This document shows, piece by piece, positions 15,670 to 34,972 of a stretch of 64,000 nt of DNA. The translations under genes and the position numbers were made by a program. The notes beneath the pieces are model-generated. The model did not search any database and was not told where the DNA came from. It worked only from the letters and a program-made list of their open reading frames with translations. Each line of letters starts with the position of its first letter. The first letter of the stretch is position 1. The stretch spans positions 47,997 through 111,996 of the forward strand of contig JOBE01000019.1 in the NCBI GenBank assembly GCA_000717735.1, read 5' to 3'. This DNA comes from Streptomyces griseoluteus. Lineage in GTDB: Bacteria > Actinomycetota > Actinomycetes > Streptomycetales > Streptomycetaceae.

Positions 15670-15783
15670 TCCTGTGCGGTGAGCCCGCCACGGGGGTGGG
15701 TCCAGCGGTCCGGGTGCCGAGCACGACGCGCGGACCACCGCCTTTCCAGTCCCTCGTCACCGACCGACCGTGGAGCACCGCCG

Positions 15784-17690: not shown

Positions 17691-17726
17691 GAGCAAGAGG
17701 CACTCCCGTGGGAGGGGGCATCGGGA

Positions 17727-18038: not shown

Positions 18039-18824
18039 ATGCTTTTCCGACTGCTGGGGCCTGTGAGAATCGCGGGCGGTGCCGAGATGCAGTCGGCGGC
18101 CCGCCGCGCGCTGCTCACCGCGCTGCTGCTGCGCCGGGGACAGTTCGTCGGCATGGGCGAGCTGACCGAGCTGTTGTGGGACGACCCGCCGAGCTCGGCG
18201 GTGGCCAACATCAGGAGCCACCTCACCGGGCTCCGCCGCGGCCTGGACTCCGCGCAGCCGGGACTGAGCGAGCGACTGACCACCAGCCGCGGCGCGGAGA
18301 CCGGGTACGCCCTCAGCGTCGACGCGGACGAACTCGATCTGTCCTGCTTCCTGAAGCTCGCCCGGCAGGGCAGGGAACTGCTCGCCGCGGGCGACCACCG
18401 GGCCGCGGTCGGCCACCTCGACGAGGCCCTCGCGCTCTGGCGCGGCCCGTTCGGCCAACGGCTCCCGGCCACCCGGTGGTTCCATGCGCACACCGTGGGC
18501 CTCAGCAACACCCGCTTCGAGGCCTGCCAGGACTTCTTCACCGCCTGTCTGCTCACCCATCGGACCGAGATGCTGTCGTACCGCATCGAGACCGTGCTGG
18601 CCGAGGCCCCCTACCGGCAGCGGCTGTGGCAGTTGCTCGCCGCCACCTACTGCACGCAGGGCGACGTGGCCGGCGCCCTGGGCGTGATCGAGCGATGTCG
18701 GACCGTCTTCGCCGACGAACTGGGCCTGGACGTCCCTCCCGGCGTCGAGGCCATCCGGGCCGCCGCGCTCACCTGGGACACAGCGCGGGCGCACCGCCTG
18801 GTGGCCGAGATGGCGCGCCAGTGA
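18039..18824 (+). CDS. SARP-family (AfsR/BTAD) pathway regulator
   Basis: A 261-residue Streptomyces antibiotic regulatory protein. Residues about 1-95 form the OmpR-like winged helix (FRLLGPVRIAGGAE, ARRALLTALLLRRGQFV, ELTELLWDDPPSSAVANIRS). Residues about 100-250 form the bacterial transcriptional activation domain (ELDLSCFLKLARQG, YRQRLWQLLAATYCTQGDVAGAL). The small size with no NB-ARC or TPR extension matches cluster-situated activators such as ActII-ORF4. The ATG at 18039 follows GAGAGGTGG. It reads away from the lantibiotic genes but is the closest activator to their 3' end. The stop overlaps the next gene's GTG. Confidence 0.9.
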   Translation: MLFRLLGPVRIAGGAEMQSAARRALLTALLLRRGQFVGMGELTELLWDDPPSSAVANIRSHLTGLRRGLDSAQPGLSERLTTSRGAETGYALSVDADELDLSCFLKLARQGRELLAAGDHRAAVGHLDEALALWRGPFGQRLPATRWFHAHTVGLSNTRFEACQDFFTACLLTHRTEMLSYRIETVLAEAPYRQRLWQLLAATYCTQGDVAGALGVIERCRTVFADELGLDVPPGVEAIRAAALTWDTARAHRLVAEMARQ

Positions 18825-19381: not shown

Positions 19382-19398
19382 GTGACCGGCCCGGTCAC
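19382..19398. terminator. Palindrome between convergent genes
   Basis: GTGACCGG, one base, CCGGTCAC. It overlaps the stop codon of the LLM oxidoreductase (19395-19397) and lies 15 bp after the membrane-protein stop. A loop of one base is too small for a simple hairpin tip, so it may act as a longer-loop hairpin or as a protein site. Confidence 0.4.
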
Positions 19399-20351
19399 GG
19401 CGCGGCCTTCAGGATCTCGTAGAGGTCGGACGCGGCGGCCCGGGGTCCGTGCACCGCGCCGACCCCGGTGACGTTGAGGACCACCTCGTCCACGCCGAGC
19501 GCCCGGTAGGCGTCAAGGCGCTGGTGGATCTCCTCGGCCGTCCCGTAGAGGAAGATCCCGCCGTCCACCAGGGCGCGGACGTCGTCGGGCCCGCCGTCGC
19601 CGGTGACCTGGATCCCGGCCCGCCGCAGGACGGCCTGGTAGTGGGGGAACTGGATGTGCCCGCCGCAGGTCGCCCGCAGCAGTTTCGCCATGTCCCGGTC
19701 GGGGCCGGCCAGGGCCACCGGGACATAGGCGGTGACTTTGACCGGCTGCTCCGGACGCCGCTCCTTCGCGCTCCGCAGAGCCGGGATCAGGAACTCCTCC
19801 AGGTACGCCGCCGAGGCCATCCAGGTGATGGCCACATCGGCGAGTTCTCCGGCGAGTTCGGCCATCCGCTCCCGCAGGACGCCCAGGCCCAGCGACACCT
19901 CCGGCTTGTGGAACGGCATGAGCTGCGCCTTGGCGGAGAAGATCTCCCCCTCGCGGTCGCTGATCCCGCCGTCCAGCAGGTCCCGGACGATGGTGACGTA
20001 CTCCCGGCAGGCGGTGAGCTGACTGGGGTACGGACGTCCCATGGCGCAGGTCTGCGCGGCGAGCGAGCCCGGACCGTAGCCGGCCACCACCTCGTGCCCG
20101 GTGGCCAGCGCCGCGGACCGGGCCTCGATCGCCGCGTTGTACGGCGAGCGGTAGGGCATCAGCGACACCCCGAACCCGGCGGGCACCCTGATTCCGGAGC
20201 CGGCCAACCAGCTCACGATCTGATGGCTGTCCAGAACGAGGCCCTGGCCCTGCCACAGCCGGGCCGCGCCACCCCATTTGACGAGATTGGCGAAGGGGAT
20301 CACCTGCTCGGGGCGGGTGGCGTTGACGGGGAGGAGGATCGAGTGCCGCAT
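19395..20351 (-). CDS. LLM-class (luciferase-like, probably F420-dependent) oxidoreductase; candidate lanthipeptide Dha/Dhb reductase
   Basis: A 318-residue TIM-barrel flavin/F420 oxidoreductase: MRHSILLPVNATRPEQ start, GHEVVAGYGPGSLAAQ, REYVTIVRDLLDG, and the C-terminal YGTAEEIHQRLDAYRALGVD-like region, all typical of the luciferase-like superfamily. The ATG at 20351 follows GAAAGGG. It lies 47 bp after the beta-side LanM gene and ends the minus-strand lantibiotic run. F420H2-dependent LLM enzymes of class V lanthipeptide clusters (LxmJ of lexapeptide; LanJC group) reduce dehydroalanine to D-Ala, and lacticin 3147, to which these peptides are related, carries D-Ala. I therefore infer a Dha or Dhb reductase. 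A different tailoring role is possible; family membership is firm, the reaction is not. Confidence 0.75.
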   Translation of the reverse strand: MRHSILLPVNATRPEQVIPFANLVKWGGAARLWQGQGLVLDSHQIVSWLAGSGIRVPAGFGVSLMPYRSPYNAAIEARSAALATGHEVVAGYGPGSLAAQTCAMGRPYPSQLTACREYVTIVRDLLDGGISDREGEIFSAKAQLMPFHKPEVSLGLGVLRERMAELAGELADVAITWMASAAYLEEFLIPALRSAKERRPEQPVKVTAYVPVALAGPDRDMAKLLRATCGGHIQFPHYQAVLRRAGIQVTGDGGPDDVRALVDGGIFLYGTAEEIHQRLDAYRALGVDEVVLNVTGVGAVHGPRAAASDLYEILKAAP

Positions 20352-20398
20352 CCCGGCAGCCCTTTCGACGAGTGGTGGAGCGGAGGACAGGCGGGCGG

Positions 20399-23218
20399 TC
20401 AGCTCGGGGAAGGCGCGGACAGTTCCAGGGGGAGGCGCAGACCTGCCGGGTCCGCGCCGCTGAGCAGGGCATCGACCATCAGGTCGGTGTCGCCCACGCC
20501 GGCCCAGCCGAGCATGTAGCCGATCAGTGAGGTCCGGCCGGCCGCGCCGGTGAAGTAGCCGTCCTCGCGGATCCGGTCGAGGACCTCGGTCTGATGGACG
20601 GCGGCCCGCTCGAACAGGTCCGCGCGTCCCAGGGTGCGGCCCGCGCCGATCAGGCACTGGACGACGCCGCTGCTGCCGTGGCAGACGGAGAGGTCCACCG
20701 CGCGGCCGGGCGCCAGGGCGGTCGCCCGGCCGACCAGACCGGCGAGCCGGGACTCGGTCAGCCAGTCCTCCCGGCCCGCCGCGACGAGGATCTCCGAGCC
20801 GGCCAGCAGGAGACCGGCGGCGCCCTTGCACCAGCCGTGCTCCGCCGGGACGCCGTCCCGCTCCCAGCGGCCGATCAGCCAGTCCGCCGCCTCCTTGGCG
20901 GTGCGCTCGAGGCCCAGAACGGATCCGGTCCGGGCGGCCGCCCAGCGCAGTCCCAGTTCGCCGTGGGCCAGGTCCGACCAGTGGGTGTCCCGCTCCCTGC
21001 CCAGGTGGGACAGGGCCAGGTCGGTGAGCCGCTCGACCGTCGTGGCGTCGGCGGGGAAGGAGGAGCCGTCGCGGCGGAGACGGTCGAGCAGGACCATCAG
21101 CAGCCCGGCCGGGCCGTTGGAGAGGTCGGTCTCGAGGACGCCTTCCGTCGCGCGGTCCTGGAGGGCCTGGAGCAGCCCGGCCAGCCGGGCGGACGCGGTG
21201 GTCGGCTCCTCGGGGCGGACCAGCAGAAGCGAGGCGGCCCCCGTGAACACCGACTCGGGGCGCTGCAGCAGCGCCTCGCCGTACTCGGCGAGCAGGGTGG
21301 TGAGCCCCCGGTCGGCGCTGCCGGCCGGACCGGCCAGGCTGTCGTCGCGGGCGGCGGCGCGGTTGAGGAAGGAGACCACGCCGGCCGAGTCGTGGAAGGA
21401 GACGAAGTTGCCCGGGGTGATGGTGGAGGCGTCGCGGTCCGGGCCGATGCCGCCGACCCATCCGCACTCCTCCTGACCGCCGGGAGCGGTGACCGGCACC
21501 CGCACCTCGGCGATCCGCCCGGCGATCGCCCGCCACCAGTCGCCGGGGCGGGCCCCGGCCAGCAGGTGCCCGCCGAAGACCCCGGAGGCCGAGAGCCCGC
21601 CGGGCGTGTCCTCGCCGCACAGCTCGCCGAAGCACTCCTCGAGCAGGAAGTGGTGGTAGGCGTCGGTGCGGGCCGCGTTGTGGGCGACGCCGCGCCGGGC
21701 GAAGTCCAGCGCGGTCGCCGAATACACCCCGGGCGTCGACCCGTTGACCGTGCCGAGCGCGTCGGAGTCGCCCCGGGTGACGAAGTACGGCACGTTGCCG
21801 CCGTGCAGCGAGGCGCGCTCCGCGTCCCCCGCGAAGCGCTCCGCCTCGGGGGACAGGTAGTCCTGGTGCATCTTCAGGAGTCCGAACAGCCGCTCGGCCT
21901 CCTTGGGATCCACCAGGTACTTCGGGTGGGTGGAGGCGTCGATGAAGCGACCGTAGATCATGGTGGAGCGCAGCAGCAGCCGCACCGGCACGCCGGGGTG
22001 AGCCTCCAGGACGCGGGTGACGGCGCCGTCCCGCAGGGCCGTCAGGGCCGCACGGCAGCCGGCCAGGATGGCGTCGAACCACTCGGTGGCGATCAGGTGC
22101 GTCTCGCCCAGCCGGGGCACGTTGTCGCCCTGCCGGTAGTTGAAAGGTTCCCGTGACACCGCGATGGCGTCCGTTCCCGGGTCGCGGATCACGGCGCTGG
22201 TCATGGACGACGGCTGGTCGCCCGCCACCCCGACGCCCGCCATGATGAAGTCGACCGGCGAGGTCGGGTTCACCATCGGCACCAGCATCGTGGAGGCGAC
22301 GGACAGCTTGGTGTGGTTCATCAGCGCGTCGGGGAGCGAGTCGTCGCCCACCCCGGCGTCCGGCCGGAGCATGGTCTCCGTGTCGATGACGCACGGGTGC
22401 TCGCCACAGGCCAGCAGGTTCTCGTCGTGCAGGTCGGTGGCACCGATGGAGCCGAACAGCAGCGCCAGCGCGCCGATCCGGTAGAAGTAGCGGCCGGGCT
22501 GGTCCGCCCGCTCCATGGCGGCCGGCACGGTGAACTCCTGCCAGCCGTGCGTGCCCACGGTGAACGACCGGGGGACGCAGCGGGACAGCGGGTGCTCCAG
22601 GTACGGGTCGACCGCCCGGTACAGGTCGCGGACGAAGTCGTCCGCGGTGAGCGGACGCGGCTTGAACACCAGCCGGGTTCCGTTGGCCAGGTGGAGGATG
22701 TGTACCTGACGGTTGTCGTTGTGCAGGTCGGAGCCGCTGGGGGAGATCGCGGACAGCAACCGGCCGTCGTCGCCCGGCTCGCCGAGCAGTCCGGCCTCCG
22801 CAAGGAGCGGGTGGTCGTCGGCGAAGGCGGTGAGGAACTCGCGGTAGGCGTCCAGGGAGTGGGACAGCATCGAGGCCAGCCGCAGCCGCAGCACCGGGTA
22901 CTTCTCGAGGAGGGCGTCCGGGACGCCGGGCTCCTCCAGACGGGCCGTGAAGCGGCGCAGGGCGGTGTCTCCGCCCGACTCCATCGGCAGGCCCAGCTGC
23001 TCGCGGAAGGCGTGGAACTCGCCGATGAGTATCCGGTAGGACTGCGTCTCCACCGTTTTCAGCAGGGCCTCGTGGGCCTGGTCCAGCACGCTGTCGAGGC
23101 GGTCGGGGGCGGCAGCCCGCAGCAGCGGCTCGCGCAGCTCCTTCTCGACCGCGGACCGGGGGACCACTTGGGAGTAGAAGGGGAGGAAGGCCTCGACGGC
23201 CACCATGCTCTCGCTCAT
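20399..23218 (-). CDS. lanM: Class II lanthipeptide synthetase LanM (beta-peptide side)
   Basis: A 939-residue bifunctional LanM that dehydrates Ser/Thr and cyclises with Cys. The dehydratase half has the kinase-like lipid-fold motifs: LVFKPRPL with Lys186, TDLHDENLL with His264 and Asn267, and VIDTETML with Asp279. The LanC-like half has zinc ligands Cys797 (HGWCKGAAG), Cys846 and His847 (SVCHGSSG); the Lys after Cys797 replaces the usual His of WCHG but the ligands are intact. Its ATG overlaps the stop of the LanT gene upstream (ATGA), and that gene follows the beta precursor gene, so this enzyme most likely modifies the beta peptide. All catalytic residues are present. Confidence 0.94.
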   Translation of the reverse strand: MSESMVAVEAFLPFYSQVVPRSAVEKELREPLLRAAAPDRLDSVLDQAHEALLKTVETQSYRILIGEFHAFREQLGLPMESGGDTALRRFTARLEEPGVPDALLEKYPVLRLRLASMLSHSLDAYREFLTAFADDHPLLAEAGLLGEPGDDGRLLSAISPSGSDLHNDNRQVHILHLANGTRLVFKPRPLTADDFVRDLYRAVDPYLEHPLSRCVPRSFTVGTHGWQEFTVPAAMERADQPGRYFYRIGALALLFGSIGATDLHDENLLACGEHPCVIDTETMLRPDAGVGDDSLPDALMNHTKLSVASTMLVPMVNPTSPVDFIMAGVGVAGDQPSSMTSAVIRDPGTDAIAVSREPFNYRQGDNVPRLGETHLIATEWFDAILAGCRAALTALRDGAVTRVLEAHPGVPVRLLLRSTMIYGRFIDASTHPKYLVDPKEAERLFGLLKMHQDYLSPEAERFAGDAERASLHGGNVPYFVTRGDSDALGTVNGSTPGVYSATALDFARRGVAHNAARTDAYHHFLLEECFGELCGEDTPGGLSASGVFGGHLLAGARPGDWWRAIAGRIAEVRVPVTAPGGQEECGWVGGIGPDRDASTITPGNFVSFHDSAGVVSFLNRAAARDDSLAGPAGSADRGLTTLLAEYGEALLQRPESVFTGAASLLLVRPEEPTTASARLAGLLQALQDRATEGVLETDLSNGPAGLLMVLLDRLRRDGSSFPADATTVERLTDLALSHLGRERDTHWSDLAHGELGLRWAAARTGSVLGLERTAKEAADWLIGRWERDGVPAEHGWCKGAAGLLLAGSEILVAAGREDWLTESRLAGLVGRATALAPGRAVDLSVCHGSSGVVQCLIGAGRTLGRADLFERAAVHQTEVLDRIREDGYFTGAAGRTSLIGYMLGWAGVGDTDLMVDALLSGADPAGLRLPLELSAPSPS

Positions 23219-25419
23219 GCCCCGGCACCTTCCACCAGCAGTTCGGCCGTCCGGCCGGCCCCATCGGCTGTCGCCGCGTACAGGTCCCGGTACACGCTGC
23301 CTCCGTCCATGAGTTCTGAGTGTGTTCCTTGCTCGACGATCCGTCCCTGGTCGAACACGTAGATGAGGTCGGCGGACTCGATCGTCGACAGGCGGTGCGC
23401 GATGACGATCTGGGTGGCGCCGATTCCCTCGATCAGCCGGGTCACCCGGCGTTCGTTGACCGTGTCCAGGGAGGCAGTGGCCTCGTCCATGACGAGGATG
23501 GACGGCCGCTGCAGGAGGGTGCGCACGATGGCGAGCCGCTGCCGCTGCCCCCCGGAGAAGTTGGAGCCCATCTCGGCGACCAGGGTCTGCAGGCCCATCG
23601 GCAGGTCGTCGAGGAAGTCCAGGATGCCGGCCTCGCGGCAGAACTCCCGGACGGTCTCCTCGGGGATGTCCTGGCCCAGGGTGAGGTTCTCCAGGATCGA
23701 CCGGTTGTGCAGGTGGACCTCCTGCGGGATGTAGCCGATCACCCGGCGCAGGGAGTCCCGGTCGTACTCGCCGGCGTCCCGGCCGCCGAAGCGGACCGCG
23801 CCGGAGGTGGGTTCGTGCAGGCCGCAGACGATCCGGGCCAGGGTGCTCTTGCCCGACCCGGAGGCGCCCACCAGGGCGACCCGGGCGCCCGCCGGGATGT
23901 CCATGGAGACGTCGCGGACCACCGGTTCGCTGTGCCGGGTGTAGCGGAAGGACACCTGGTCCAGTTGGACGGAGGCGGACGCCAGCTCCTTGCGGTCACC
24001 GCCGGGGCCCTCGGGCTCGGTGCGGGTGATGTCGCTCAGGCGCGACATGTAGCGGCTGGTCTCGGTGAACTCCGCGTACGCCTGGAACACCGAGGTGGAG
24101 ATCGCGAAGTAGGTGGCGGCGACGGTCTGCACCGCGATCGCCCCGCCGATGCTGATGGTTCCCCGGCCGACGAAGTAGAGGCTGGCGAGCAGCAGCAGCA
24201 GCGGCCCGAACATCTGGATGGTGGCCGCCACACCGGTCACCCGGCCCTGCTGCAGCCGCATCCGCGCCTTCATCGCGTCGAGGGAGGCGGCGTAGGTCTC
24301 GCGCCAGGTGTCCAGGTACTGCTCGGCGTAGCCGCCCATCTTGATGGTCGGGATGGAGACGATGGCGTCCAGCTGCAGCGACTGGCTCCTGCCCAGGTGG
24401 GTGATCTCCATGTCGACCGCCTCGAGCACCCGCAGGCGGGTGGCGGCCAGATAGCCGGCGTTGGCGAGGACCAGGGCGAGCGCCATCAGCCCCAGCCGCC
24501 ATTCCACGTGCAGCAGGTAGCCGCTGACGCAGACCATGGTGCCGACGTCCAGCACGCCCTGGGCGACCCGGGAGGAGAGCATGTCGCGGACGGCGTTGAC
24601 GCTGCCGAGCCGGAAGAGCAGCTCGCCGGGCTGACGGGTGGTGAAGAACCGGTACGGCAGCAACAACAGCCGGGTGAAGGCGTGGTCCATCAGATGCCGT
24701 CCGAGCACCGACACCAGCGAGGACAGCAGCAGGATCCTCAGGAGATGCAGCAGGTAGTAGCCGACGGCGGCGCCGACCACCATGCCGATGACCCACAGAT
24801 GGTCGCCGAGCTCCGTCCAGCCGGAGAACCGGTCCACGGACCACTCGGTGAGCAGCGGGATTCCCAGGACAGCGGCGTAGGCGGCCAGCGACAGCGCGCC
24901 GACACCGGCCATCCGGCGCCCCGCGCCCTCGGGCAGCAGGGGCATCGTCCGCCAGTCGGCGAAGGGCCTGCGGCGCAGCCGGCGGAACTCGGGGCCGGGC
25001 TCGGCGGTGAGGACCACGCCGCTGAAGTGCCGGGCGAGTTCGTCCGAGGTCATCCGTCGGCGGCCGACGGCCGGGTCCATGACGACGGCCTGATCGCCGT
25101 CGAAGCTCTCCAGGACCACGAAGTGGTGATCGTCCCAGAAAAGGATCACGGGCGAGTCGAACCGGGTGAGCGCTGCGACGCTCCGGGCGCTCAGCAGCCG
25201 GCTCCGCATGCCGCGGGACTCCAGGAACCGCGCGAGCTGCCGGGCGCTCAGGCCGTCCCGTCCCGCGTCCATGTCCTCGCGGACCTCGGAGAGGCCTTCG
25301 TCCCGCCCGTAGTAGCGGAGCAGGGACACGCAGCAGCACAGACCGCACTCGGTCTGGGCGACCTGGGTGACGGCCGGCACGCGTCGCGCGGTCCGACGTG
25401 ATTCCGGGCGAGCGCCCAT
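23215..25419 (-). CDS. lanT: Peptidase-containing ABC exporter LanT (beta-peptide side)
   Basis: A 734-residue AMS/PCAT-type exporter that removes the leader and exports the modified peptide. The N-terminal C39 peptidase has Cys25 (QTECGLCC), His99 (WDDHHFVVLE) and Asp115 (VMDPAVGRR). Six membrane segments follow, then the ATPase with GASGSGKST, FSGGQRQRLAI, ILVMDEATASLD and IVIAHRLST. The start is ATG 25419 (MGARPESRR), with GGAGGTG at ideal spacing; an in-frame ATG 12 codons earlier has no ribosome site. It lies 192 bp downstream of the beta precursor gene, past a strong hairpin, and its stop overlaps the lanM start. It is about 45 percent alike in reading with the second LanT of the locus, judged by eye. 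Confidence 0.94.
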   Translation of the reverse strand: MGARPESRRTARRVPAVTQVAQTECGLCCCVSLLRYYGRDEGLSEVREDMDAGRDGLSARQLARFLESRGMRSRLLSARSVAALTRFDSPVILFWDDHHFVVLESFDGDQAVVMDPAVGRRRMTSDELARHFSGVVLTAEPGPEFRRLRRRPFADWRTMPLLPEGAGRRMAGVGALSLAAYAAVLGIPLLTEWSVDRFSGWTELGDHLWVIGMVVGAAVGYYLLHLLRILLLSSLVSVLGRHLMDHAFTRLLLLPYRFFTTRQPGELLFRLGSVNAVRDMLSSRVAQGVLDVGTMVCVSGYLLHVEWRLGLMALALVLANAGYLAATRLRVLEAVDMEITHLGRSQSLQLDAIVSIPTIKMGGYAEQYLDTWRETYAASLDAMKARMRLQQGRVTGVAATIQMFGPLLLLLASLYFVGRGTISIGGAIAVQTVAATYFAISTSVFQAYAEFTETSRYMSRLSDITRTEPEGPGGDRKELASASVQLDQVSFRYTRHSEPVVRDVSMDIPAGARVALVGASGSGKSTLARIVCGLHEPTSGAVRFGGRDAGEYDRDSLRRVIGYIPQEVHLHNRSILENLTLGQDIPEETVREFCREAGILDFLDDLPMGLQTLVAEMGSNFSGGQRQRLAIVRTLLQRPSILVMDEATASLDTVNERRVTRLIEGIGATQIVIAHRLSTIESADLIYVFDQGRIVEQGTHSELMDGGSVYRDLYAATADGAGRTAELLVEGAGA

Positions 25420-25483
25420 GGCTACCGCACCTCCGGGTTGTGGGACGTCGGGCAAGGAGTGGGACGTGCATCGACGGGGCGTC

Positions 25484-25551
25484 GGACGGGGCGGGAGGCC
25501 GGGAAGTCCGGCGCGGGCCGGACCTCGGTCCGGCCCACCCCCGCCCCGTCC
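25484..25551 (-). terminator. Nested hairpin after the beta precursor gene (possible attenuator)
   Basis: An outer repeat GGACGGGGCGGG (25484-25495)/CCCGCCCCGTCC (25540-25551) encloses an inner GGGCCGGACC-2nt-GGTCCGGCCC stem (25515-25536). It lies 61-128 bp after the lanA stop and before lanT. Bacteriocin operons often carry such a stem so that the structural gene is made in excess over its processing genes. Confidence 0.7.
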
Positions 25552-25611
25552 GTCGTGACCGACGCGGCGGTCCGGTTCAGCGGGCCGCGCGTATCAGAGC
25601 CGTCAAGGGCT

Positions 25612-25785
25612 TCAGCACTGGCTGGTGCACTTGGTGGTCGGGCAGGCGGAGGCGGACACCAGGGTCGCCACGGCGGTGACGATGGCGCAGCTCCAGGTGG
25701 TACCGCCGTACACGTCCGCCTCGCCCATCTCGACGAGCTCGAACTCGTCGTAGCCGCCGAGGACGTCGGCCTGCATCTTCTCCAT
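25612..25785 (-). CDS. lanA2: Two-component lantibiotic beta precursor peptide
   Basis: A 57-residue precursor. ATG 25785 follows AAAAGGAGAAGACC, a near-perfect ribosome site. The acidic leader (residues 1-28, rich in Glu/Asp) ends in VYGG, a double-glycine site for a C39 peptidase. The 29-residue core begins TTWSCAIVTAVA and ends CPTTKCTSQC, with Cys at core positions 5, 20, 25 and 29 and many Ser/Thr. Haloduracin beta starts TTWPCATVG and ends CPTTKCTSQC, and lacticin 3147 A2 ends CPTTKCTRAC, so the C-terminal two-ring block is the conserved beta-peptide signature. In those systems the beta peptide forms pores once the alpha peptide has bound lipid II. A second internal GG at residues 10-11 is unlikely to be cut. 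Confidence 0.95.
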   Translation of the reverse strand: MEKMQADVLGGYDEFELVEMGEADVYGGTTWSCAIVTAVATLVSASACPTTKCTSQC

Positions 25786-25948
25786 GGTCTTCTCCTTTTC
25801 GATTTTCTCCCGACACGCGCCCGGATATCGTCCGGCGAAATACGGAACGCGTATCCCCCGTCTTCGGAGGACGCCTCCCAGTCTGTCCGCCCTCAATTCG
25901 CCGAACGCATAGACCTGACGCCCTTGCACGCACACGCTGAAATGCGCC
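25786..25948 (-). promoter_or_regulatory. Upstream region of the beta precursor gene
   Basis: About 160 bp, less GC-rich than its surroundings, lies between the terminator-like stem after the LanE gene and the lanA2 start. It must hold the lanA2 promoter if the stem terminates transcription. I could not pick a convincing -35/-10 pair. Confidence 0.45.
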
Positions 25949-25976
25949 GGGCCCCCACACATTCGCGTGGGGGCCC
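25949..25976 (-). terminator. Terminator after the LanE gene
   Basis: GGGCCCCCAC (25949-25958) and GTGGGGGCCC (25967-25976) pair perfectly over an 8-nt loop, 22 bp beyond the LanE stop. It separates the alpha-side/immunity transcript from the beta precursor gene. Confidence 0.8.
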
Positions 25977-25998
25977 ATTCGCGGGGTTCGTCGACCGA

Positions 25999-26736
25999 TC
26001 AGACATCCCGCCGCACAGTCATCCAATGTCCGAGTGCCACCGAGCCCACCGTCCACGCGGTGAGCACGCCCAGCCCGGACCACGCTCCCAGTACCTCGTC
26101 GCTCCCAGAGCCGCGCAGCACCAGGCCCCCGGCCACATCCGGCAGGAACCGTGCCACCTCCCCGACCCCCGGTATGTTGCTGAGGATCGTGGAGAGCATG
26201 AAGAACAGCGGAAGCAGAACGGACAGCGCCGCCGCCCCCGACCGCAGCAGCGTCGCCACTCCCATGGAGAACGCCACCAGCAGCATCGTGTAGAGCACCG
26301 CCCCCGCCACATGCCCCGCCGTGGCGAGTCCCGTCGGCGCCCGGTGCTCCCCGACGCCGCTCTGCACGATCAGGAAGGCCGGCACCACGCCCGCCACCGC
26401 CAGCCCCCCGCTGACCAGGCTGACAAGACCCACCTTGGCGTAGTAGAAGCGGGCCCGGTCGGGGACGGCCAGCAGACTGCTCCTGATCGACCCCGACGCG
26501 TACTCGCCCGTCACCGCGAGAATCCCCATGATCACCAGGACGATCATCCCGAGCGGTACGGCCGACAGGCCGAGCCCGATCGGGTCGAACCCGGGCGCCG
26601 TCAGCTGCCTTTCGCCGGGAACCAACCCGTAGACGAAGGCAAGGCCGATCATCAGGACGAGATAGACCGCGGAGGACCATTTCGGAGACCGCAGCGTCGT
26701 CAATTTGACCCATTCCGCGGCCACGGCGTGCTTCAT
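25999..26736 (-). CDS. lanE: LanE-type ABC-2 permease (self-immunity)
   Basis: A 245-residue ABC-2 family permease with about six hydrophobic segments (for example AVYLVLMIGLAFVYGLV, AVPLGMIVLVIMGILAV, SVLLPLFFMLSTILSNI) and the cytoplasmic EYASGSIRSSLLAVPDRARFY loop typical of BcrB/LanE permeases. Its ATG overlaps the stop of the ATPase gene (TGATG). Together they should form a LanFE exporter that removes the lantibiotic from the membrane of the producer. No second permease (LanG) or LanI lipoprotein is present next to it, so the permease would act as a homodimer. The 3' end is followed by a terminator stem. Confidence 0.85.
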   Translation of the reverse strand: MKHAVAAEWVKLTTLRSPKWSSAVYLVLMIGLAFVYGLVPGERQLTAPGFDPIGLGLSAVPLGMIVLVIMGILAVTGEYASGSIRSSLLAVPDRARFYYAKVGLVSLVSGGLAVAGVVPAFLIVQSGVGEHRAPTGLATAGHVAGAVLYTMLLVAFSMGVATLLRSGAAALSVLLPLFFMLSTILSNIPGVGEVARFLPDVAGGLVLRGSGSDEVLGAWSGLGVLTAWTVGSVALGHWMTVRRDV

Positions 26737-27650
26737 CAGAACCCTCCCGTCGAAGCCCGGTATTCAGCGTGTTCCTGCGTCAGCTTCATAAAGGCCTCCT
26801 CGAGCGAACCCGCGGAAGCGGTCAGCTCGAAAACCGCGATGTTCTCCGCGCTCGCGACGAGCCCGACCTTTTCAACGGACGCCCCGCTCACCGCCAGCGT
26901 CGCCGCGTCCTGCCGCACGGACTCGATGCCCCGCTCCCGCAGCGCCCGCCGCATCCCCTCCGGATCGGCCACCCGGGCCAGCACGGTCCTGTCCGAGTGC
27001 GCGGCGATGAACGCGTCCACGGGGGTGTCCGCGAGCAGCCGGCCCCGGGCCACGACCACCAGATGGTCGGCGGTCACCGCCATCTCGTTCATCAGGTGGG
27101 AGGAGACCAGCACCGTCCGCCCCTCCGCGGCCAGCCCCCGCATCAGCTCCCGGATCCACCGGACACCCTCGGGGTCGAGCCCGTTGACCGGCTCGTCGAA
27201 CAGCAACACCTCGGGGTCGCCGAGCAGCGCCGCCGCGACGCCGAGCCGCTGCCCCATGCCGAGGGAGAACCCGCGCACCCTCTGCCGGGCCACCGCGAGC
27301 AGGCCGACCCGGTCAAGGACCTCGTCGGCCCGGGTGGCGGGCAGGCCGTGCGAGGCGGCAAGCACCCGCAGGTGGTCCCGGGCACTGCGGCCCGGGTGCA
27401 CGGCCCTCGTGTCGAGCAGCGCTCCCACCCGGGTCAGCGGGCGCGCCAGGCTCCGGTAGGGGACGCCGAAGACGGTGGCCCGGCCGGCGGTGGGCTCGTC
27501 CAGACCGAGGATCACGCGCAGGGTGGTGGACTTGCCGGCGCCGTTGGGGCCGAGGAATCCGGTGACCCTCCCCGGCGTCACGGAGAACGACAGACCGTCC
27601 ACGGCGACCTTCGCGCCGTACCGTTTGGTGAGGTTCTCGACCTCGATCAT
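26736..27650 (-). CDS. lanF: LanF-type ABC transporter ATPase (self-immunity)
   Basis: A 304-residue ATPase of the bacitracin/lantibiotic-resistance type. Walker A GPNGAGKST (about residues 34-42), signature FSLGMGQRLGV, Walker B VLLFDEPVNGLDP and the H-loop SSHLMNEM are all intact. The variable C-terminal about 90 residues end with FMKLTQEHAEYR, as in BcrA-like proteins. ATG 27650 is given as the start because GAGAGG is 7 nt upstream; an adjacent GTG at 27653 is equally in frame. It lies 55 bp downstream of the alpha-side LanT gene and is coupled to the permease gene, which supports an immunity role. Confidence 0.88.
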   Translation of the reverse strand: MIEVENLTKRYGAKVAVDGLSFSVTPGRVTGFLGPNGAGKSTTLRVILGLDEPTAGRATVFGVPYRSLARPLTRVGALLDTRAVHPGRSARDHLRVLAASHGLPATRADEVLDRVGLLAVARQRVRGFSLGMGQRLGVAAALLGDPEVLLFDEPVNGLDPEGVRWIRELMRGLAAEGRTVLVSSHLMNEMAVTADHLVVVARGRLLADTPVDAFIAAHSDRTVLARVADPEGMRRALRERGIESVRQDAATLAVSGASVEKVGLVASAENIAVFELTASAGSLEEAFMKLTQEHAEYRASTGGF

Positions 27651-27705
27651 CACAGCACCTCTCGTCCATGAACAGTCGTGACCGGACGGCCCTGCCCGTC
27701 CGCCC

Positions 27706-29847
27706 TCATACGGCCCCCGCCACCGGCTCCGCGTACAGCCCCGCGTACACCCCGCCCAGGGCCAGCAACTCCTCGTGCGTCCCCCGCTCCACGATCCGGC
27801 CGCGGTCCAGGACGTGGATCAGGTCCGCGTCCTGGATCGTCGCCAGCCGGTGCGCGATGACGATCTGCGTGGCGCCGGTCTCCGCGATGATCCGGGAGAC
27901 CCGCCGCTCGTTGGCGGTGTCCAGCGAGGCGGTCGCCTCGTCCAGGACGATGACCCGCGGTCGTTGCAGCAGTGTCCGCACGATGGCCAGCCGCTGCCGC
28001 TGCCCGCCGGAGAAGTTGGAGCCCATCTCGGACACCAGGGTCCGCAGCCCCATCGGCAGTTCCTCGACGAAGTCGAGGATCCCCACGGCCGCGCAGTACT
28101 CCCGGACCGTGGCCTCGTCGATGTCCTGGCCCAGGGTCAGGTTCTCGAGGATGGTCCGGTTGTGCAGGTGCACCTCCTGCGGGACGTACCCGATCTGCCC
28201 GCGCAGGAAGTCGGTCCGGTACGCGCTCATGGGGCGGCCGCAGAACTCCACCGCCCCTCCGGTCGGCTGGTGGAGTCCGCAGACGACGCGCCCGACGGTG
28301 GACTTGCCCGAACCCGACGCCCCGACGAACGCCACCTTCGCGCCTGCCGGGATCTCCAGCGACACGTCCTCCAGCACCGGTCTGCTGTGCCGGGTGTAGC
28401 GGAACGACACCTCCCTCAGCCGTATCGAGGTGTCGTGGAGTTCCGTGAGGGGCCCGCCCTCCGGCTCGCTCTCGTGCGCCGTGATGTCGCTCAGCCGGCT
28501 CACGTAGCGGGAGGTCTCGGTGATCTCCGTCAGCATCTGGAAGACGGAGGTGCTCAGGGCGAAGAAGGTGCCTGCCACGGCCTGCACGGCGATGGCCGAG
28601 CCGATGGTCACCGTCCCCCGCGACACGAAGTGCAGGCCGGCGAGGAGCAGCGCCAGCGGGCCGAACATCTGCGTGGTGGCGGCGATTCCGGAGATCCAGC
28701 CCTGCTGGATCCGCATCCGGGTGCGCATCGCGTCCAGCGAGGCGCCGTAGGTCGCCTCCCATTCGTCGGCGAACCGGCCGGCGTAGCCGCCCATCTTGAT
28801 GGTGGGGACGGACACGATGGCGTCGAGCTGCGTGGACTGGGAGCGGGAGAGCAGTGCGAGCTCGGTGTCCGTCACCTCCTTCACCCGGTGCCGGCTCAGC
28901 CACAGGAAGGTGCCGTTCAGCAGGAACAGCGCGAGTGCCAGCAAGCCGATGCGCCACTCGGTGACGAACAGGTAGACGCCGATGCAGGCCAGGGTCCCCA
29001 CGTCCAGGACCCCCTGGGCGATCCGCGAGGAGAGCAGGTCCCGGACGCTGTTGACGGTGTTCAGGCGGAACAGCAGCTCGCCGGGCTGCCGGGTGGCGAA
29101 GAACTTGAACGGCAGGGAGAGCAGTCTCCTGAAGACATGGCTCATCAGGTGATGGCCCGTCACGGCGATGAGCCCCGCGAGCGCGGCGGTGCGCAGCATC
29201 CACAGCAGCAGGTAGCCGATCGCGGCCCCCGCCACCGCCCCCGCGATCAGCCCCGTCTGGGACAGGTCGCTCCAGGCGTCGTCCCGGTCGACGGCCCACT
29301 TCGTCAGCGCCGGTATGCCCAGCACCGCCGCGTAGGAGCCCAGCGACAGCAGGGCGACCAGGGCGATCCGGCGGCCTGCCCGGGCAGGGACCAGCGGCAG
29401 CGACCGCCAGTGCCGGAAGGCGGGGAGGGACTGCCGGACGAAGTCCGGGCCGGGGGAGGCCGCGATCACCACCTGGGAGAAGCCGGCCTCCAGCTCGTCG
29501 CGGGTGAGGCGCTTGCGGCCCACGGCCGGGTCCATCACCCAGGCCGTCGTGCCGTCGAAGCGCTCCAGTACCAGGAAGTGGTAGTCCTCCCAGAAGAGGA
29601 TCACGGGCTCGGTGAAGCCCCGCAGGGCCTCCACGCTCCGGGCCCGGAACGCCTTGACCTCCATGCCGCGCGAGCGCAGGAAGTCCGCGAGCTGCTTGGC
29701 GCCGAGACCGTCCCGGCCGGCCTCCAGGTCCTCCCGTACGGTGCGGAAGTCCTCGGTGCGGCCGTGGTACCCCATCACCGCGACGCAGCAGCACAGCCCG
29801 CACTCCGTCTGGGTGACCTGGGTGACGGAGGGAACCCGGAGGCCCAT
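27706..29847 (-). CDS. lanT2: Peptidase-containing ABC exporter LanT (alpha-peptide side)
   Basis: A 713-residue leader peptidase/exporter. The C39 domain carries Cys16 (QTECGLCC), His90 (YHFLVLE) and Asp106 (VMDPAVG). The membrane domain and ATPase follow with GASGSGKST, FSGGQRQRLAI, VIVLDEATASLD and IVIAHRLAT. Its ATG overlaps the stop of the alpha-side lanM (TGATG). It is strongly similar along its whole length to the LanT at 23215-25419, which indicates duplication of an ancestral exporter. Having one exporter per peptide differs from haloduracin and lacticin 3147, where a single LanT serves both. Confidence 0.94.
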   Translation of the reverse strand: MGLRVPSVTQVTQTECGLCCCVAVMGYHGRTEDFRTVREDLEAGRDGLGAKQLADFLRSRGMEVKAFRARSVEALRGFTEPVILFWEDYHFLVLERFDGTTAWVMDPAVGRKRLTRDELEAGFSQVVIAASPGPDFVRQSLPAFRHWRSLPLVPARAGRRIALVALLSLGSYAAVLGIPALTKWAVDRDDAWSDLSQTGLIAGAVAGAAIGYLLLWMLRTAALAGLIAVTGHHLMSHVFRRLLSLPFKFFATRQPGELLFRLNTVNSVRDLLSSRIAQGVLDVGTLACIGVYLFVTEWRIGLLALALFLLNGTFLWLSRHRVKEVTDTELALLSRSQSTQLDAIVSVPTIKMGGYAGRFADEWEATYGASLDAMRTRMRIQQGWISGIAATTQMFGPLALLLAGLHFVSRGTVTIGSAIAVQAVAGTFFALSTSVFQMLTEITETSRYVSRLSDITAHESEPEGGPLTELHDTSIRLREVSFRYTRHSRPVLEDVSLEIPAGAKVAFVGASGSGKSTVGRVVCGLHQPTGGAVEFCGRPMSAYRTDFLRGQIGYVPQEVHLHNRTILENLTLGQDIDEATVREYCAAVGILDFVEELPMGLRTLVSEMGSNFSGGQRQRLAIVRTLLQRPRVIVLDEATASLDTANERRVSRIIAETGATQIVIAHRLATIQDADLIHVLDRGRIVERGTHEELLALGGVYAGLYAEPVAGAV

Positions 29848-32810
29848 CAGAGGGCCCCGTGCCAGATCGGTGACACCCGGGGCCGCGCGTCGTCGAGGCG
29901 GCCGAGGAGGTGCAGCAGCACACCCGAGGAGCCCACCATGGCGCTGTCGGTGTGCGCGTAGCGGGAGCCGGTGTCGGCGAGCTTCTCCGCGACCACGTCA
30001 GGACCCAGTCGGCGCGCCTCGACGGCGGCGGCCCGCTCCAGCAGCTTCCGGTCGTCGCCGGCGATCCGGCGGACCACGTCGATGTTGCCGAGGTCGCCGT
30101 GACACCAGGTGAGGTTGCGTCCGAAGCCCTGCCGGAAGGTGTTGTCCAGGGCCGCCTCCAGGCGCTCGGCGGTCCGTTCGTCCGCTGTCCGGGCGGTCAC
30201 GGCGGACAGCGCCATGGCGATGCCGGCGGCGCCGTGGCACCAGCCGGTGGAGAACCGGCCAGGGAAGGCGGAGTTGGTGGACCAGTTCCGCTCCTGGGGC
30301 ACGTAGAAGGACTCCAGACGGTCCGTCAGGACGCCGATGGCGGCGTCGACGCGGTGTCCGGTGTGGTGATCGGTGTGGTGACCTGTGTGGTCGGGCAGCG
30401 TGGCGAGGGCGTGCAGGACTCCCGCGACGCCGTGCGCGAAGCCCGACTGCTCCCACCAGGAGCCCGACGGCTCCTCCACATGGCGCAGCAGCCGGCCGGT
30501 GAGCCCGTCCAGGGCCTTGAGGCTGTGGTCGCCGCCGATCGAGGCGATCATCGTGGCGATGCCGGAGATCCCGGAGATCACCTCCGGGGTGTTCTCGGGG
30601 CCGAGCTGCTCCACGACCAGCGGCACGGCGTCCTGTGCCGCCTTGACCCAGCCCGGCTCCCGCAGGATTCGCCCGGCCTCGCACAGGGCGAACAGCAGGC
30701 CGGTGGTTCCGGTGTAGGCGCCGGCACCGCTCTGCCGGATGCTGCGCAGCTCGTAGACGCCGTCGGTGAGGATGCCGGCGCTGCGCTCGAAGACCTGGCG
30801 TGCCACCCGCTCGTAGCGTTCGTCGCCGAAGTGGGCCGCGGCCGCGGCCAGGGCAAGGGCGGGGCCGGTGCGTCCGGTGTACAGGTCGTACCCCAGCACG
30901 CCGGAGGGCCAGGGCCGGGCGGCCTGCGCGGAGGCGAGCGGGCCGATCCAGGTGGCGGGAAGATGACCGTACTGGTCGGGGAGGCTGCCCGCGGTCAGGG
31001 CGTCGGCCAGCGACCGGGCGAGCCGTTCCAGGCCGGTGCGCTCTCCGGTGGAGGCCTGTCCGTTCCAGGCGGTGCCGCCGGAGAGGTGGTTGTCGGGGAA
31101 GCGGGAGCAGAAGGCCGAGTGGAGCAGCCGCAGCTGCCGCCGCACCGCCTGCTCGTCGAGCGCCCCGGCTTTGGCCAGCGCCCGGGAGAGGGGTGTGCGG
31201 TCGAGCCGTACGCCGGTGTCCTCGCCGTCGCAGTCGTGGACGGTGGTGCCGGTGGCGGGCACGGTGAAGTAGGGGACGTCGCGTTCGGCCATCTGCCGCA
31301 GCTCCGAGCCGACCAGCCTGCGGTCGGAGAACCGGGAGGGGATGGCGATCCTGTGGAGCAGGGCCTGGGCGAGCGCCGGGTCGGCCATCGCTGCGGCGGA
31401 GGCCGCCATCCGCAGGATCTGCGCGTACTGCGACGTCGGGTTGTGGATGTAGCGGAGGCGCATGGCCGGAGCGAGCTCCTCAAGGAGGGTGGTCCACCAG
31501 GAGGGCCGGCGCATCACCGCCTCGCAGACCTGCCGGAACCCGTCGGCCATCTGTCCGGCGAGCCCGTGGATCTCCTGTTCGGTGCTCTCCCGGACCACGG
31601 TGGAGCGCTGCTCGGACGGGCGGGCCTGGAGGTGCACCCGGATCCGGTCGGTGAAGGGGTGCTCGAAGACCATGGTCTTGAAGGGGGAGACGCCCTGGTT
31701 GTCGCCGCCGAGGAAACCGAGGTCGACGTAGCCGGAGTCCTCGTTCTTGCCGGCCAGGACCAACGGGAGGATCCCGATGCCGTAGACGCTGCGGCCGATC
31801 TCGTCGTACGCGTTGCCCTCGGCCTCCGGGGTGGGGCCGGCGTGCACCCGGGAGGGGTGCAGCAGCGTCTCGAGATCGATGGCCACCGGGCCCAGGCGGG
31901 TGGGCAGGATGTTCTCGAAGTGCATGTCCCGCGCGTCCAGCAGGTAGAACACGGCGGCCAGTTGGCCGCAGGCCCGCATGAACGGCACGCTGAGTCCGCC
32001 GATGTCCTCCTGCTCGACGTACTCGACGTACCCGTACCCGTCGCGCACCAGGGTGCGGGCGGCGGGCAGTGCGCAGTCGGCCTCCGCGTTGACGCGCTCG
32101 ACGACGGTCTCGAAGGCCGCCTCGCAGGAGACGTCCCGGGGCTTGTAGACCAGGCGGGCCCCCGAGGCGAACGCCAGGATGCTCACCGCCCTGCCGTGGG
32201 CGTGCGAGTCGCCGTCGGCCCCGCCGATGGACAGCAGCGGGTCGCCGGGGGCGATGCCGGAGAACCGGAAGACCTCGTCCCGGTCGGCGTGGAGGCGCCG
32301 GACCAGTTCGCGCGCGGCCTCACGGGCGTTGCGCACCACATGGCCGGCCGCGGAGCGGAGCACCGGGAACGGTTCCAGGGCGTCGCTCCACGCCCGGGCG
32401 ACGAAGTCCTGGTAGCGCTCGTGCGGGGCCGCCCCCCGCAGCAGCCCTTCGGTGGAGGCCTTGTTGACCGCGGCGACCAAGGTACGGGTCGCCACGTCGC
32501 GGAGCCGGGCCTCGGCCCGGCCGAGTACCTGGAGCGTGAAGGCGTCCAGGTCGGCGACGGCCTCCGTGAGGTCCTCGGGGAGGAGCCTGTCGGCCGCCGG
32601 CAGTGCCAGCCGCCGGATCACGCGCTGGAACGGATACTCCTCCGGCTCCAGCGACCAGGCGAGTGCGGCCGGAGAGGGGGCCTCTGGAGCGACGTCGGAC
32701 GGAGCCGAGAGCTTGACGTGGACGGCGGGCGCGAAAGCGGCGAGGGGCTCGATGGTTTCGCGGATTTCGACGCTGTCGAGTTCTGGGTAAAGATTCGCGG
32801 GCGAGATCAA
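29847..32810 (-). CDS. lanM2: Class II lanthipeptide synthetase LanM (alpha-peptide side)
   Basis: A 987-residue LanM starting at TTG 32810 (LISPANLYPE), with GGGAGCCGG upstream; longer in-frame readings run back through the precursor gene and the hairpin and are rejected. Dehydratase motifs: RLVYKPRDV with Lys223, RDMHFENIL with His297 and Asn300, AIDLETLL with Asp312. LanC-like zinc site: Cys858 (TGWCHGAAG), Cys903 and His904 (LTWCHGDLG). All key residues are intact. It lies directly after the alpha precursor gene, separated by a strong hairpin, so it most likely modifies the alpha peptide. It is diverged from the other LanM, as expected if each enzyme is specific for one peptide. Confidence 0.94.
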   Translation of the reverse strand: MISPANLYPELDSVEIRETIEPLAAFAPAVHVKLSAPSDVAPEAPSPAALAWSLEPEEYPFQRVIRRLALPAADRLLPEDLTEAVADLDAFTLQVLGRAEARLRDVATRTLVAAVNKASTEGLLRGAAPHERYQDFVARAWSDALEPFPVLRSAAGHVVRNAREAARELVRRLHADRDEVFRFSGIAPGDPLLSIGGADGDSHAHGRAVSILAFASGARLVYKPRDVSCEAAFETVVERVNAEADCALPAARTLVRDGYGYVEYVEQEDIGGLSVPFMRACGQLAAVFYLLDARDMHFENILPTRLGPVAIDLETLLHPSRVHAGPTPEAEGNAYDEIGRSVYGIGILPLVLAGKNEDSGYVDLGFLGGDNQGVSPFKTMVFEHPFTDRIRVHLQARPSEQRSTVVRESTEQEIHGLAGQMADGFRQVCEAVMRRPSWWTTLLEELAPAMRLRYIHNPTSQYAQILRMAASAAAMADPALAQALLHRIAIPSRFSDRRLVGSELRQMAERDVPYFTVPATGTTVHDCDGEDTGVRLDRTPLSRALAKAGALDEQAVRRQLRLLHSAFCSRFPDNHLSGGTAWNGQASTGERTGLERLARSLADALTAGSLPDQYGHLPATWIGPLASAQAARPWPSGVLGYDLYTGRTGPALALAAAAAHFGDERYERVARQVFERSAGILTDGVYELRSIRQSGAGAYTGTTGLLFALCEAGRILREPGWVKAAQDAVPLVVEQLGPENTPEVISGISGIATMIASIGGDHSLKALDGLTGRLLRHVEEPSGSWWEQSGFAHGVAGVLHALATLPDHTGHHTDHHTGHRVDAAIGVLTDRLESFYVPQERNWSTNSAFPGRFSTGWCHGAAGIAMALSAVTARTADERTAERLEAALDNTFRQGFGRNLTWCHGDLGNIDVVRRIAGDDRKLLERAAAVEARRLGPDVVAEKLADTGSRYAHTDSAMVGSSGVLLHLLGRLDDARPRVSPIWHGAL

Positions 32811-32854
32811 TGCTCCGGCTCCCTGCGCGGACGATGATAGATTGCCACGTTGCG

Positions 32855-32891
32855 CCGGGGGCGGGGAGCATGAGCCGCTCCCCGCCCCCGG
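32855..32891 (-). terminator. Hairpin between the alpha precursor gene and its lanM (attenuator)
   Basis: Perfect 15-nt arms CCGGGGGCGGGGAGC (32855-32869) and GCTCCCCGCCCCCGG (32877-32891) enclose a 7-nt loop, 21 bp after the lanA1 stop. No T-tract follows. It should stop most transcripts after the precursor gene and stabilise its message, with read-through feeding lanM and lanT. Confidence 0.85.
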
Positions 32892-32911
32892 TCCGTGCCC
32901 AGCTTTCGGGC

Positions 32912-33082
32912 TCAGTTGCAGTTGGGCTGGCACTCCTTGGTCAGCGTGCACCAGCCGCCCTGGTTGCCGAGGAAGTCGGAAAGCGAGAACGTGTTGGTCG
33001 AGCACGCGCCGTAGGCGACGCCGTCGAAGTCCTGCTCCGCGATCTCCTCGATGAGCGAGATGTCACCGTCGAAGTTGTTCAT
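32912..33082 (-). CDS. lanA1: Two-component lantibiotic alpha precursor peptide
   Basis: A 56-residue precursor starting at ATG 33082. The leader is short (26 residues, acidic, MNNFDGDISL start) and ends VAYGA, a GA-type site for a C39 peptidase. The 30-residue core starts CSTNTFSLSDFLGNQG and then reads GWCTLTKECQPNC plus Asn. Lacticin 3147 A1 has the same length and starts CSTNTFSLSDYWGNNG, followed by CTLTHEC, so the two align without gaps. CTLTxEC is the lipid II-binding ring motif of mersacidin and of alpha peptides. Cys lie at core positions 1, 19, 25 and 29, with Thr20 and Thr22 as the expected ring partners of Cys25 and Cys29. The gene heads the minus-strand lantibiotic run, and no longer ORF predicts it well. 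Confidence 0.96.
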   Translation of the reverse strand: MNNFDGDISLIEEIAEQDFDGVAYGACSTNTFSLSDFLGNQGGWCTLTKECQPNCN

Positions 33083-34781: not shown

Positions 34782-34789
34782 GTTCCAAC

Positions 34790-34972
34790 CTAGCCCGCGC
34801 CGGAGCCGGCCGTGCTGGATGCGGCGCCCGTGGGCGGTTCGGGGAACGTGACGAGCGGCACATTCTGCTGCTCGGGGGTGGCGTCGAGAGCGGTGACGAT
34901 TCCGAAGGCGGCGCCCGCGGCCAGGAGGGCGGCGGCGACGCAGGTCAGGAAGGCGGCAAGCAGTCTGGGCAT
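34790..34972 (-). CDS. Small single-pass membrane protein
   Basis: A 60-residue protein starting MPRLLAAFLTCVAAALLAAG: one membrane helix or uncleaved signal (residues 3-32) followed by a Pro/Ser/Thr-rich extracytoplasmic tail. Size and layout resemble DUF2613-type actinobacterial proteins. ATG 34972 has GAGAGG 12 nt upstream; an ATG eight codons earlier (34996) is the alternative. It ends 8 bp before the PucR-type regulator start, so the two are probably co-transcribed. The function is unknown. Confidence 0.6.
   Translation of the reverse strand: MPRLLAAFLTCVAAALLAAGAAFGIVTALDATPEQQNVPLVTFPEPPTGAASSTAGSGAG

What the first reader, a model, noticed from the sequence alone, without database searches (positions are those of the whole stretch)
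19395..33082. Streptomyces two-component lantibiotic locus with two precursors, two LanM, two LanT and LanFE
Seen directly: an alpha-type core (CSTNTFSLSD, CTLTKEC) at 32912-33082, a beta-type core (TTWSCA, CPTTKCTSQC) at 25612-25785, two LanM with intact Lys/His/Asn/Asp and Cys/Cys/His sites, two C39-ABC exporters and a LanF/LanE pair, all on one strand. Known: alpha/beta systems (lacticin 3147, haloduracin, lichenicidin) act together on lipid II and the membrane, and are mostly from Firmicutes; as I recall, roseocin is a reported actinomycete case with one LanM. The split, fully duplicated layout here may be new.
Basis: partly seen in the sequence, partly recalled or inferred. Interest (0 to 1): 0.95.

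Follow-up and report, generated by a model that had tools for sequence, protein, structure and literature searches.

The report
Merged-cluster two-peptide antibiotic locus
This Streptomyces gene cluster is predicted to make a two-peptide antibiotic of a known kind (lacticin 3147/birimositide type), but it is laid out as two half-clusters, each with one peptide gene, one modifying-enzyme gene and one exporter gene, and gene trees suggest that the halves likely came from two different ancestral clusters.

Summary
In detail: on the minus strand lie an alpha precursor, LanM1, LanT1, LanF, LanE, a beta precursor, LanT2 and LanM2, motifs intact. The product class is known: lacticin 3147-type two-peptide lantibiotics, already shown in Streptomyces as birimositide, with LanJC. 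Two LanMs are normal there; a LanT beside each precursor is not: 27 of 27 comparison loci of other layouts showed one LanT, while the split layout recurs in 9 distinct loci. T1 and T2 are not sisters (AU p 1e-15). M1, T1 and E are sister to a compact cluster on a Streptomyces megaplasmid, J to the S. regalis cluster; M2 and T2 are rejected as sisters of the megaplasmid genes but not firmly placed. Best reading: two homologous clusters merged and lost complementary genes, leaving one line per peptide. In 36 of 36 loci the reductase and the alpha FSxS motif are both present (31) or both absent (5). New variant of a known kind; production, modification, exporter specificity and transcription are untested.

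The parts
32912..33082 (-). lanA1, alpha precursor, 56 aa; leader ends GA, predicted core CSTNTFSLSDFLGNQGGWCTLTKECQPNCN (30 aa)
   Evidence: 21 of 30 core residues identical to the lacticin 3147 alpha precursor of pMRC01 (alignment)
32856..32890 (-). GC-rich 15-pair hairpin between lanA1 and lanM1, candidate attenuator; resembles the hairpin that follows lanA2 in the X-type cluster
   Evidence: z -3.2 for the spacer; 21 of 25 bases of the stem-loop core identical to L075 (alignment); seen in 5 of 5 split loci folded
29847..32810 (-). lanM1, class II lanthipeptide synthetase, predicted to modify alpha; TTG start predicted
   Evidence: TIGR03897 489.6 bits; 28% to LtnM1 against 20% to LtnM2; sister to L068 M1
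27706..29847 (-). lanT1, C39 peptidase-ABC exporter, predicted to serve alpha
   Evidence: sister to L068 LanT (95/100)
26736..27653 (-). lanF, ABC ATPase, predicted immunity
   Evidence: lantibiotic protection model best but below cut-off; best match L068 69%
25999..26736 (-). lanE, ABC-2 permease, predicted immunity partner
   Evidence: 28.2 bits, cut-off 27.2; sister to L068 LanE (100/98)
25949..25976 (-). 12-pair GC-rich hairpin after lanE, candidate end of the alpha half
   Evidence: z -3.0 for the stretch; a like hairpin in 5 of 5 split loci folded, and also after lanE in the compact loci L065 and L019
25896..25909 (-). motif TGCGTTCGGCGAAT, 124 bases before lanA2; the only exact match to TGCGnnnGSCGAAT in the window
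25612..25785 (-). lanA2, beta precursor, 57 aa; leader ends GG, predicted core TTWSCAIVTAVATLVSASACPTTKCTSQC (29 aa)
25483..25552 (-). large hairpin between lanA2 and lanT2, candidate attenuator
   Evidence: z -4.6 for the spacer; seen in 5 of 5 split loci folded
23215..25419 (-). lanT2, C39 peptidase-ABC exporter, predicted to serve beta (ATG at 25419; scans used 25422)
   Evidence: not sister to T1
20399..23218 (-). lanM2, class II lanthipeptide synthetase, predicted to modify beta
   Evidence: TIGR03897 310.3 bits; best lacticin 3147 match LtnM2
   Evidence: Bac_luciferase 4.3e-23; best NCBIfam matches are F420-dependent LLM families, below cut-off; present with the alpha FSxS motif in 31 of 36 loci, both absent in the other 5
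18039..18824 (+). SARP-type regulator (Trans_reg_C + BTAD), convergent with lanJC; candidate cluster regulator
   Evidence: relatives of 58-64% identity at 12 of 19 Y-type loci (two only partial), none found in the stretches held of the 3 X-type loci

Best explanation
The locus is a lacticin 3147/birimositide-type two-peptide lantibiotic cluster that is split into two half-clusters, each predicted to be one peptide's own production line, and it likely arose when two homologous compact clusters merged and lost complementary genes. Alpha half: A1, hairpin, M1, T1, F, E, hairpin. Beta half: A2, hairpin, T2, M2, JC. Predicted working: M1 dehydrates and cyclises alpha, M2 beta; the reductase turns dehydroalanine (alpha Ser7, and probably a Ser of beta) into D-Ala; T1 and T2 each cut the double-glycine-type leader and export one peptide; alpha binds lipid II and beta then makes the pore; LanFE protects the producer. 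Shown here: genes, motifs, layout, homology, gene-tree conflict, joint presence of reductase and FSxS. Inferred: merger, transcription as two units, exporter specificity. Not tested: any chemistry or activity.
For: Family hits and motifs. M1 and M2 match LtnM1 and LtnM2. Order A1-A2-M1-T-M2-J in lacticin 3147 and in the compact actinobacterial clusters. Split + L068 sister: M1 100/100, T1 95/100, E 100/98. J sister to S. regalis 100/99, split + X rejected p 5e-36. Also rejected: T1+T2 one clade p 1.4e-15; M2 with L068 p 1e-37, T2 with L068 p 1e-9, T2 with X p 8e-12, T1 with S. regalis p 5e-110; M1 with S. regalis p 9e-42. Best precursor matches: A1 to X-type (87-91%), A2 to Y-type (64%; X 53-58%). 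The hairpin after A1 resembles the X-type hairpin that follows A2. Two promoter-region motifs: GTTGTG before 9 of 9 split lanA1, TGCGnnnGSCGAAT (up to one mismatch) before 9 of 9 split lanA2. SARP gene as at 12 of 19 Y-type loci. Reductase and FSxS together in 31 of 36 loci, both absent in 5. CofD, an F420 biosynthesis enzyme, in the same genome. Birimositide was produced and synergistic, with a LanJC (PMC7268733 section 10).
Against: LanF is not placed with L068 in its tree, though that is not rejected (split + X p 0.115; split + L068 p 0.33). The clade T1 + all X is unstarred (81/76). The Y origin of M2 and T2 is weak: with S. regalis 70/98 and 52/96, unstarred, and M2 split + X (p 0.27) and T2+T1+X (p 0.20) are not rejected. 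Most clades were named after similarities or quick trees had been seen. GTTGTG also precedes lanA1 in 4 of 19 Y loci, S. regalis has neither motif, and both motifs were picked by eye. A hairpin after lanE also occurs in two compact loci. No convincing remnants of lost genes in the spacers. X and Y genes are mixed in other loci too (L065, L047), so piecemeal exchange could mimic one merger. The birimositide authors call the reductase flavin-dependent; F420 use here is not shown. No transcript, mass or activity data.
Confidence: 0.7

Rival explanations
1. Ordinary birimositide-type cluster in which lanT was duplicated locally and the genes were then reshuffled; the layout has no functional meaning and either exporter handles both peptides.
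For: T1 and T2 are 65% identical over 709 residues and both keep their motifs; one LanT evidently suffices in the compact clusters.
Against: T1 and T2 as one clade are rejected (p 0.0016; p 1.4e-15); T1, M1 and E share one outside sister, J has another. Interchangeable exporters are not excluded.
Confidence: 0.15
2. Two single-peptide lantibiotics encoded side by side rather than one synergistic pair: an alpha-only product and a beta-only product under separate control.
For: Two precursor-synthetase-exporter sets with different promoter-region motifs and hairpins at their borders.
Against: The cores are of the alpha and beta kinds of lacticin 3147 and both are kept in 9 of 9 split loci; only one LanFE and one LanJC were found for both; birimositide with the same kinds of peptide is synergistic.
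Confidence: 0.05
3. Piecemeal exchange: a Y-type cluster took over the alpha-side genes (A1, M1, T, F, E) from an X-type cluster by recombination in one or several steps while keeping its own T, rather than a tandem merger with complementary loss.
For: Other mosaics exist: L065 has X-type M1 and T but F and E among the Y-type ones; L047 carries a second, X-like J beside its own.
Against: The alpha half keeps the order A1, hairpin, M1, T, F, E of L068 as a block, with only A2 and M2-J missing.
Confidence: 0.1

Closest known systems
Birimositide (brt), Streptomyces rimosus WC3908 (PMC7268733; section 10 and passages read)
   Same: Actinomycete two-peptide lantibiotic, lacticin-like alpha, luciferase-like LanJC; the beta precursor here matches the family model LchA2/BrtA2
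   Different: Its gene order is drawn in a figure that is not held, so whether it is compact or split was not tested; its peptides were seen and tested, these were not
Lacticin 3147 (pMRC01, NC_001949.1, fetched)
   Same: A1, A2, M1, T, M2, J content; alpha core 21 of 30 identical; M1/M2 correspond
   Different: Compact order, one LanT, and its J is a medium-chain dehydrogenase (LanJA), not LanJC
Compact lacticin-type clusters of Streptomyces, e.g. S. regalis NRRL 3151 (L021/L048), Streptomyces sp. NBC_01431 megaplasmid (L068/L075) and S. viridochromogenes DSM 40736 (L047; listed as a putative two-component cluster in PMC3951391, passages)
   Same: Same gene families, LanJC included
   Different: One LanT; precursors adjacent; in the 7 compact loci folded the long hairpin follows lanA2
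Roseocin family (PMC10027976, passages)
   Same: Two-peptide lantibiotics of actinomycetes
   Different: Different alpha motif and usually one promiscuous LanM, as the passages say; not compared directly here
Paralichenicidin, Bacillus paralicheniformis (PMC6458615, passages)
   Same: Two-peptide cluster annotated with LanT1-LanT3; the same passages give two putative LanTs for a pneumococcal cluster
   Different: Bacillota, lichenicidin-like; not described in those passages as one transporter per precursor block

Membership tests
Class II lanthipeptide cluster | LanM with DUF4135 dehydratase and LanC-like cyclase domains, and a precursor gene | tested here: met
   motifs
Lacticin 3147-type two-component lantibiotics | alpha precursor with the CTxT/SxEC lipid II motif | tested here: met
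   CTLTKEC; motif as given in PMC11519912 passages
Lacticin 3147-type two-component lantibiotics | beta precursor of the kind ending in CPTTKCT plus a last Cys | tested here: met
Lacticin 3147-type two-component lantibiotics | two dedicated LanMs of low mutual identity | tested here: met
   25%; best matches LtnM1 and LtnM2; that each serves one peptide is inferred
Lacticin 3147-type two-component lantibiotics | one LanT for both precursors, compact order A1-A2-M1-T-M2-J (typical, not defining) | tested here: not met
   two LanTs, split order
Lacticin 3147-type two-component lantibiotics | synergy of two peptides, lipid II binding | not testable with these tools
   needs purified peptides
LanJC (luciferase-like dehydroamino acid reductase) | PF00296 protein encoded in a lanthipeptide cluster | tested here: met
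   a relative lies in the compact clusters too
LanJC (luciferase-like dehydroamino acid reductase) | reduction of dehydroalanine to D-Ala (F420H2-dependent in the enzymes described in print) | not testable with these tools
   F420 subfamilies are the best NCBIfam matches but below cut-off; CofD in the genome; co-occurrence with FSxS
Roseocin family | roseocin-like precursors with a RosM-type LanM | not tested
   the precursors match lacticin-type models instead; no direct comparison with RosM was made

The most novel reading that the evidence does not exclude
Two homologous antibiotic clusters fused and shed complementary genes, turning a shared assembly line into two autonomous ones in which each peptide of a synergistic pair has its own promoter, attenuator, synthetase and exporter, so the cell can set the alpha:beta ratio.
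Probability: 0.35. Interest if true: 0.65.

Novelty: new variant of a known kind. Interest (0 to 1): 0.5.

Why it matters
It widens the lacticin 3147/birimositide kind in Streptomyces with a recurring layout (9 distinct loci), and offers a natural experiment on exporter-precursor matching and on how two-peptide dosage is set. The joint presence of LanJC and the alpha FSxS motif in 31 of 36 loci, and joint absence in 5, makes the site of D-Ala formation directly testable. The gene-tree conflict is a readable case of biosynthetic clusters recombined into a new architecture.

Tried and rejected
Local duplication of lanT: rejected by AU tests. Relics of lost genes in the spacers: 14 short hits with E 0.001-0.048, treated as chance. 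Sigma-70 promoters and T-tailed terminators: 0 and 1 found against 0.2 and 2.4 expected; uninformative. The flank comparisons labelled 'pucR' used an out-of-frame slice and were dropped; the gene itself was confirmed in frame.

What the counts leave out. Trees left out five split loci (L018, L028, L030, L031, L033) as near-duplicates, and the J tree had only the window's J from the split group; replace them. Those hold 28 of the 36 distinct loci (5 of 9 split, 3 of 3 X, 18 of 19 Y, 2 Nocardioides); genes covering under half of the query, and LanF/LanE hits under 41%, were dropped first, so L034 is missing from the J tree. The M1 tree also took in a third, unrelated LanM from each Nocardioides locus. 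The distant loci L025-L027 were in the quick T and M1 trees, L025 also in M2, not in later trees nor. Of 26 genomes with an alpha match (14, 18, 6 shared) the regions of 4 (G512, G666, G668, G671; 41-43% identity) were not fetched. S. rimosus's own cluster was not identified; the birimositide figure and supplement were not readable.

Print check: the listings and the passages I read showed no report of this split layout with one LanT per precursor. The library holds only open-licence papers and no figures, and most hits were seen as listings, so this is not proof of absence.

Full report
What is there. Pfam or NCBIfam support each gene; lanE only just passes its Pfam cut-off, and the best NCBIfam model for lanF, lantibiotic protection, is below its cut-off. 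The expected active-site motifs are there.

Known class. The alpha core shares 21 of 30 residues with lacticin 3147 alpha, and the beta core has the CPTTKCT end. M1 and M2 are best matched by LtnM1 and LtnM2 respectively. Actinomycete members are known: birimositide of S. rimosus was produced and synergistic, and led its authors to name luciferase-like reductases LanJC (PMC7268733, section 10). Two LanMs are usual in this family (PMC10027976 passages). LanJC enzymes are described as F420H2-dependent (PMC13348032 passages; PMC10373908 passages), while the birimositide paper speaks of a flavin-dependent oxidoreductase; the cofactor here is open. The genome holds a CofD match over the curated cut-off (427 bits).

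How common. An alpha match was found in 14 of 392 sampled genomes of the genus and in 18 of 394 of the family: 26 different genomes, of which I inspected the regions of 22, the window included: 7 split, 2 X-type compact, 10 Y-type compact, 3 distant. A named scan gave 25 loci: 7 split (S. exfoliatus, S. flavochromogenes, S. wedmorensis, S. termitum, strains Root431, NBC_00572, R302), 1 X, 15 Y, 2 Nocardioides. All 9 split loci have two LanTs; the other 27 show one that covers over half of the query. Actinoplanes L049 has a further 44% LanT match on the other strand that did not reach that coverage.

Two sources. X and Y are my labels for two kinds of compact cluster. Against L068 (linear megaplasmid of Streptomyces sp. 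NBC_01431) the window's M1, T1, F and E are 64, 80, 69 and 64% identical, M2 and J only 47 and 51%; against S. regalis, T2, M2 and J are 72, 58 and 72% (by score M2 is as near to L046). Trees: M1 with L068 100/100, T1 with L068 95/100, E with L068 100/98, J with S. regalis 100/99. AU tests reject T1+T2 (1.4e-15), J with X (5e-36), M1 with S. regalis (9e-42), T1 with S. regalis (5e-110), M2 with L068 (1e-37) and T2 with L068 (1e-9). Against a clean picture: F is not placed with L068 (not rejected), M2 and T2 are not firmly placed, and grouping them with the whole X side is not rejected (0.27 and 0.20). Most clades were named after similarities or quick trees had been seen.

Anatomy of the join. 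Lacticin 3147 and the compact clusters share the order A1-A2-M1-T-M2-J; F and E follow J in L068 and L052. The window reads like A1-(A2 gone)-M1-T1-(M2, J gone)-F-E, then (A1 gone)-A2-(M1 gone)-T2-M2-J. In the 7 compact loci folded a long stem follows A2 and none like it A1; in the 5 split loci folded a long stem follows A1, lanE and A2 (energies without shuffles; z -3.2, -3.0 and -4.6 in the window). Two of the compact loci (L065, L019) also have a stem after lanE. The stem-loop after the window's A1 matches the one after A2 in L068 in 21 of 25 core bases, as expected if A2 was lost from between. GTTGTG lies 125-126 bases before lanA1 in 9 of 9 split loci, and before lanA1 in 3 of 3 X and 4 of 19 Y loci; TGCGnnnGSCGAAT (up to one mismatch) lies 123-130 bases before lanA2 in 9 of 9 split loci, and before lanA1 in 6 of 19 Y, 0 of 3 X and 0 of 9 split loci. 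These motifs were picked by eye; one Y locus (L043) had only 95 bases upstream. The SARP gene next to J has relatives at 12 of 19 Y loci (two only partial) and none in the stretches held of the 3 X loci, which end a few kb beyond the cluster.

The reductase. In 36 of 36 loci the reductase and the alpha motif F[ST]xS[DNG] are both present (31) or both absent (5). The motif was defined after I had seen the alphas. The 5 without are 3 distant relatives and 2 Y-type loci (L045, L072), so independent losses are few. Residue 7 is the Ser reduced in rodencin alpha (PMC11519912 passages), and the birimositide alpha was judged to match lacticin 3147 in the place of its D-Ala. This supports, but does not prove, Ser7 as the site here.

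Verdict. A real, complete-looking, recurring cluster; the product class and LanJC are known, the split architecture with a LanT beside each precursor and its likely composite origin are the new part. Production, modification pattern, exporter specificity and transcription are predictions.

Noticed in passing
L047 (S. viridochromogenes DSM 40736): A second LanJC-like gene upstream on the other strand groups loosely with the X-type reductases while the cluster is Y-type: perhaps another trace of X-Y exchange.
   Followed up: partly
L065 (G536, another genus of the family): X-type M1 and T but F and E that fall among Y-type ones, with FE in front of lanA1: a further mosaic.
   Followed up: partly
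L038, L039, L042, L070: Two beta precursor copies in tandem beside one alpha.
   Followed up: no
L050, L051 (Nocardioides): A third LanM-like gene on the other strand near a lacticin-type cluster.
   Followed up: no
window 15679-16593 (+) and 16695-17696 (-): Two flanking proteins with only a sub-threshold DUF7436 match, conserved beside the split cluster in 6 other split loci.
   Followed up: no
window 33519-35054 (-): PucR-type regulator upstream of lanA1.
   Followed up: no
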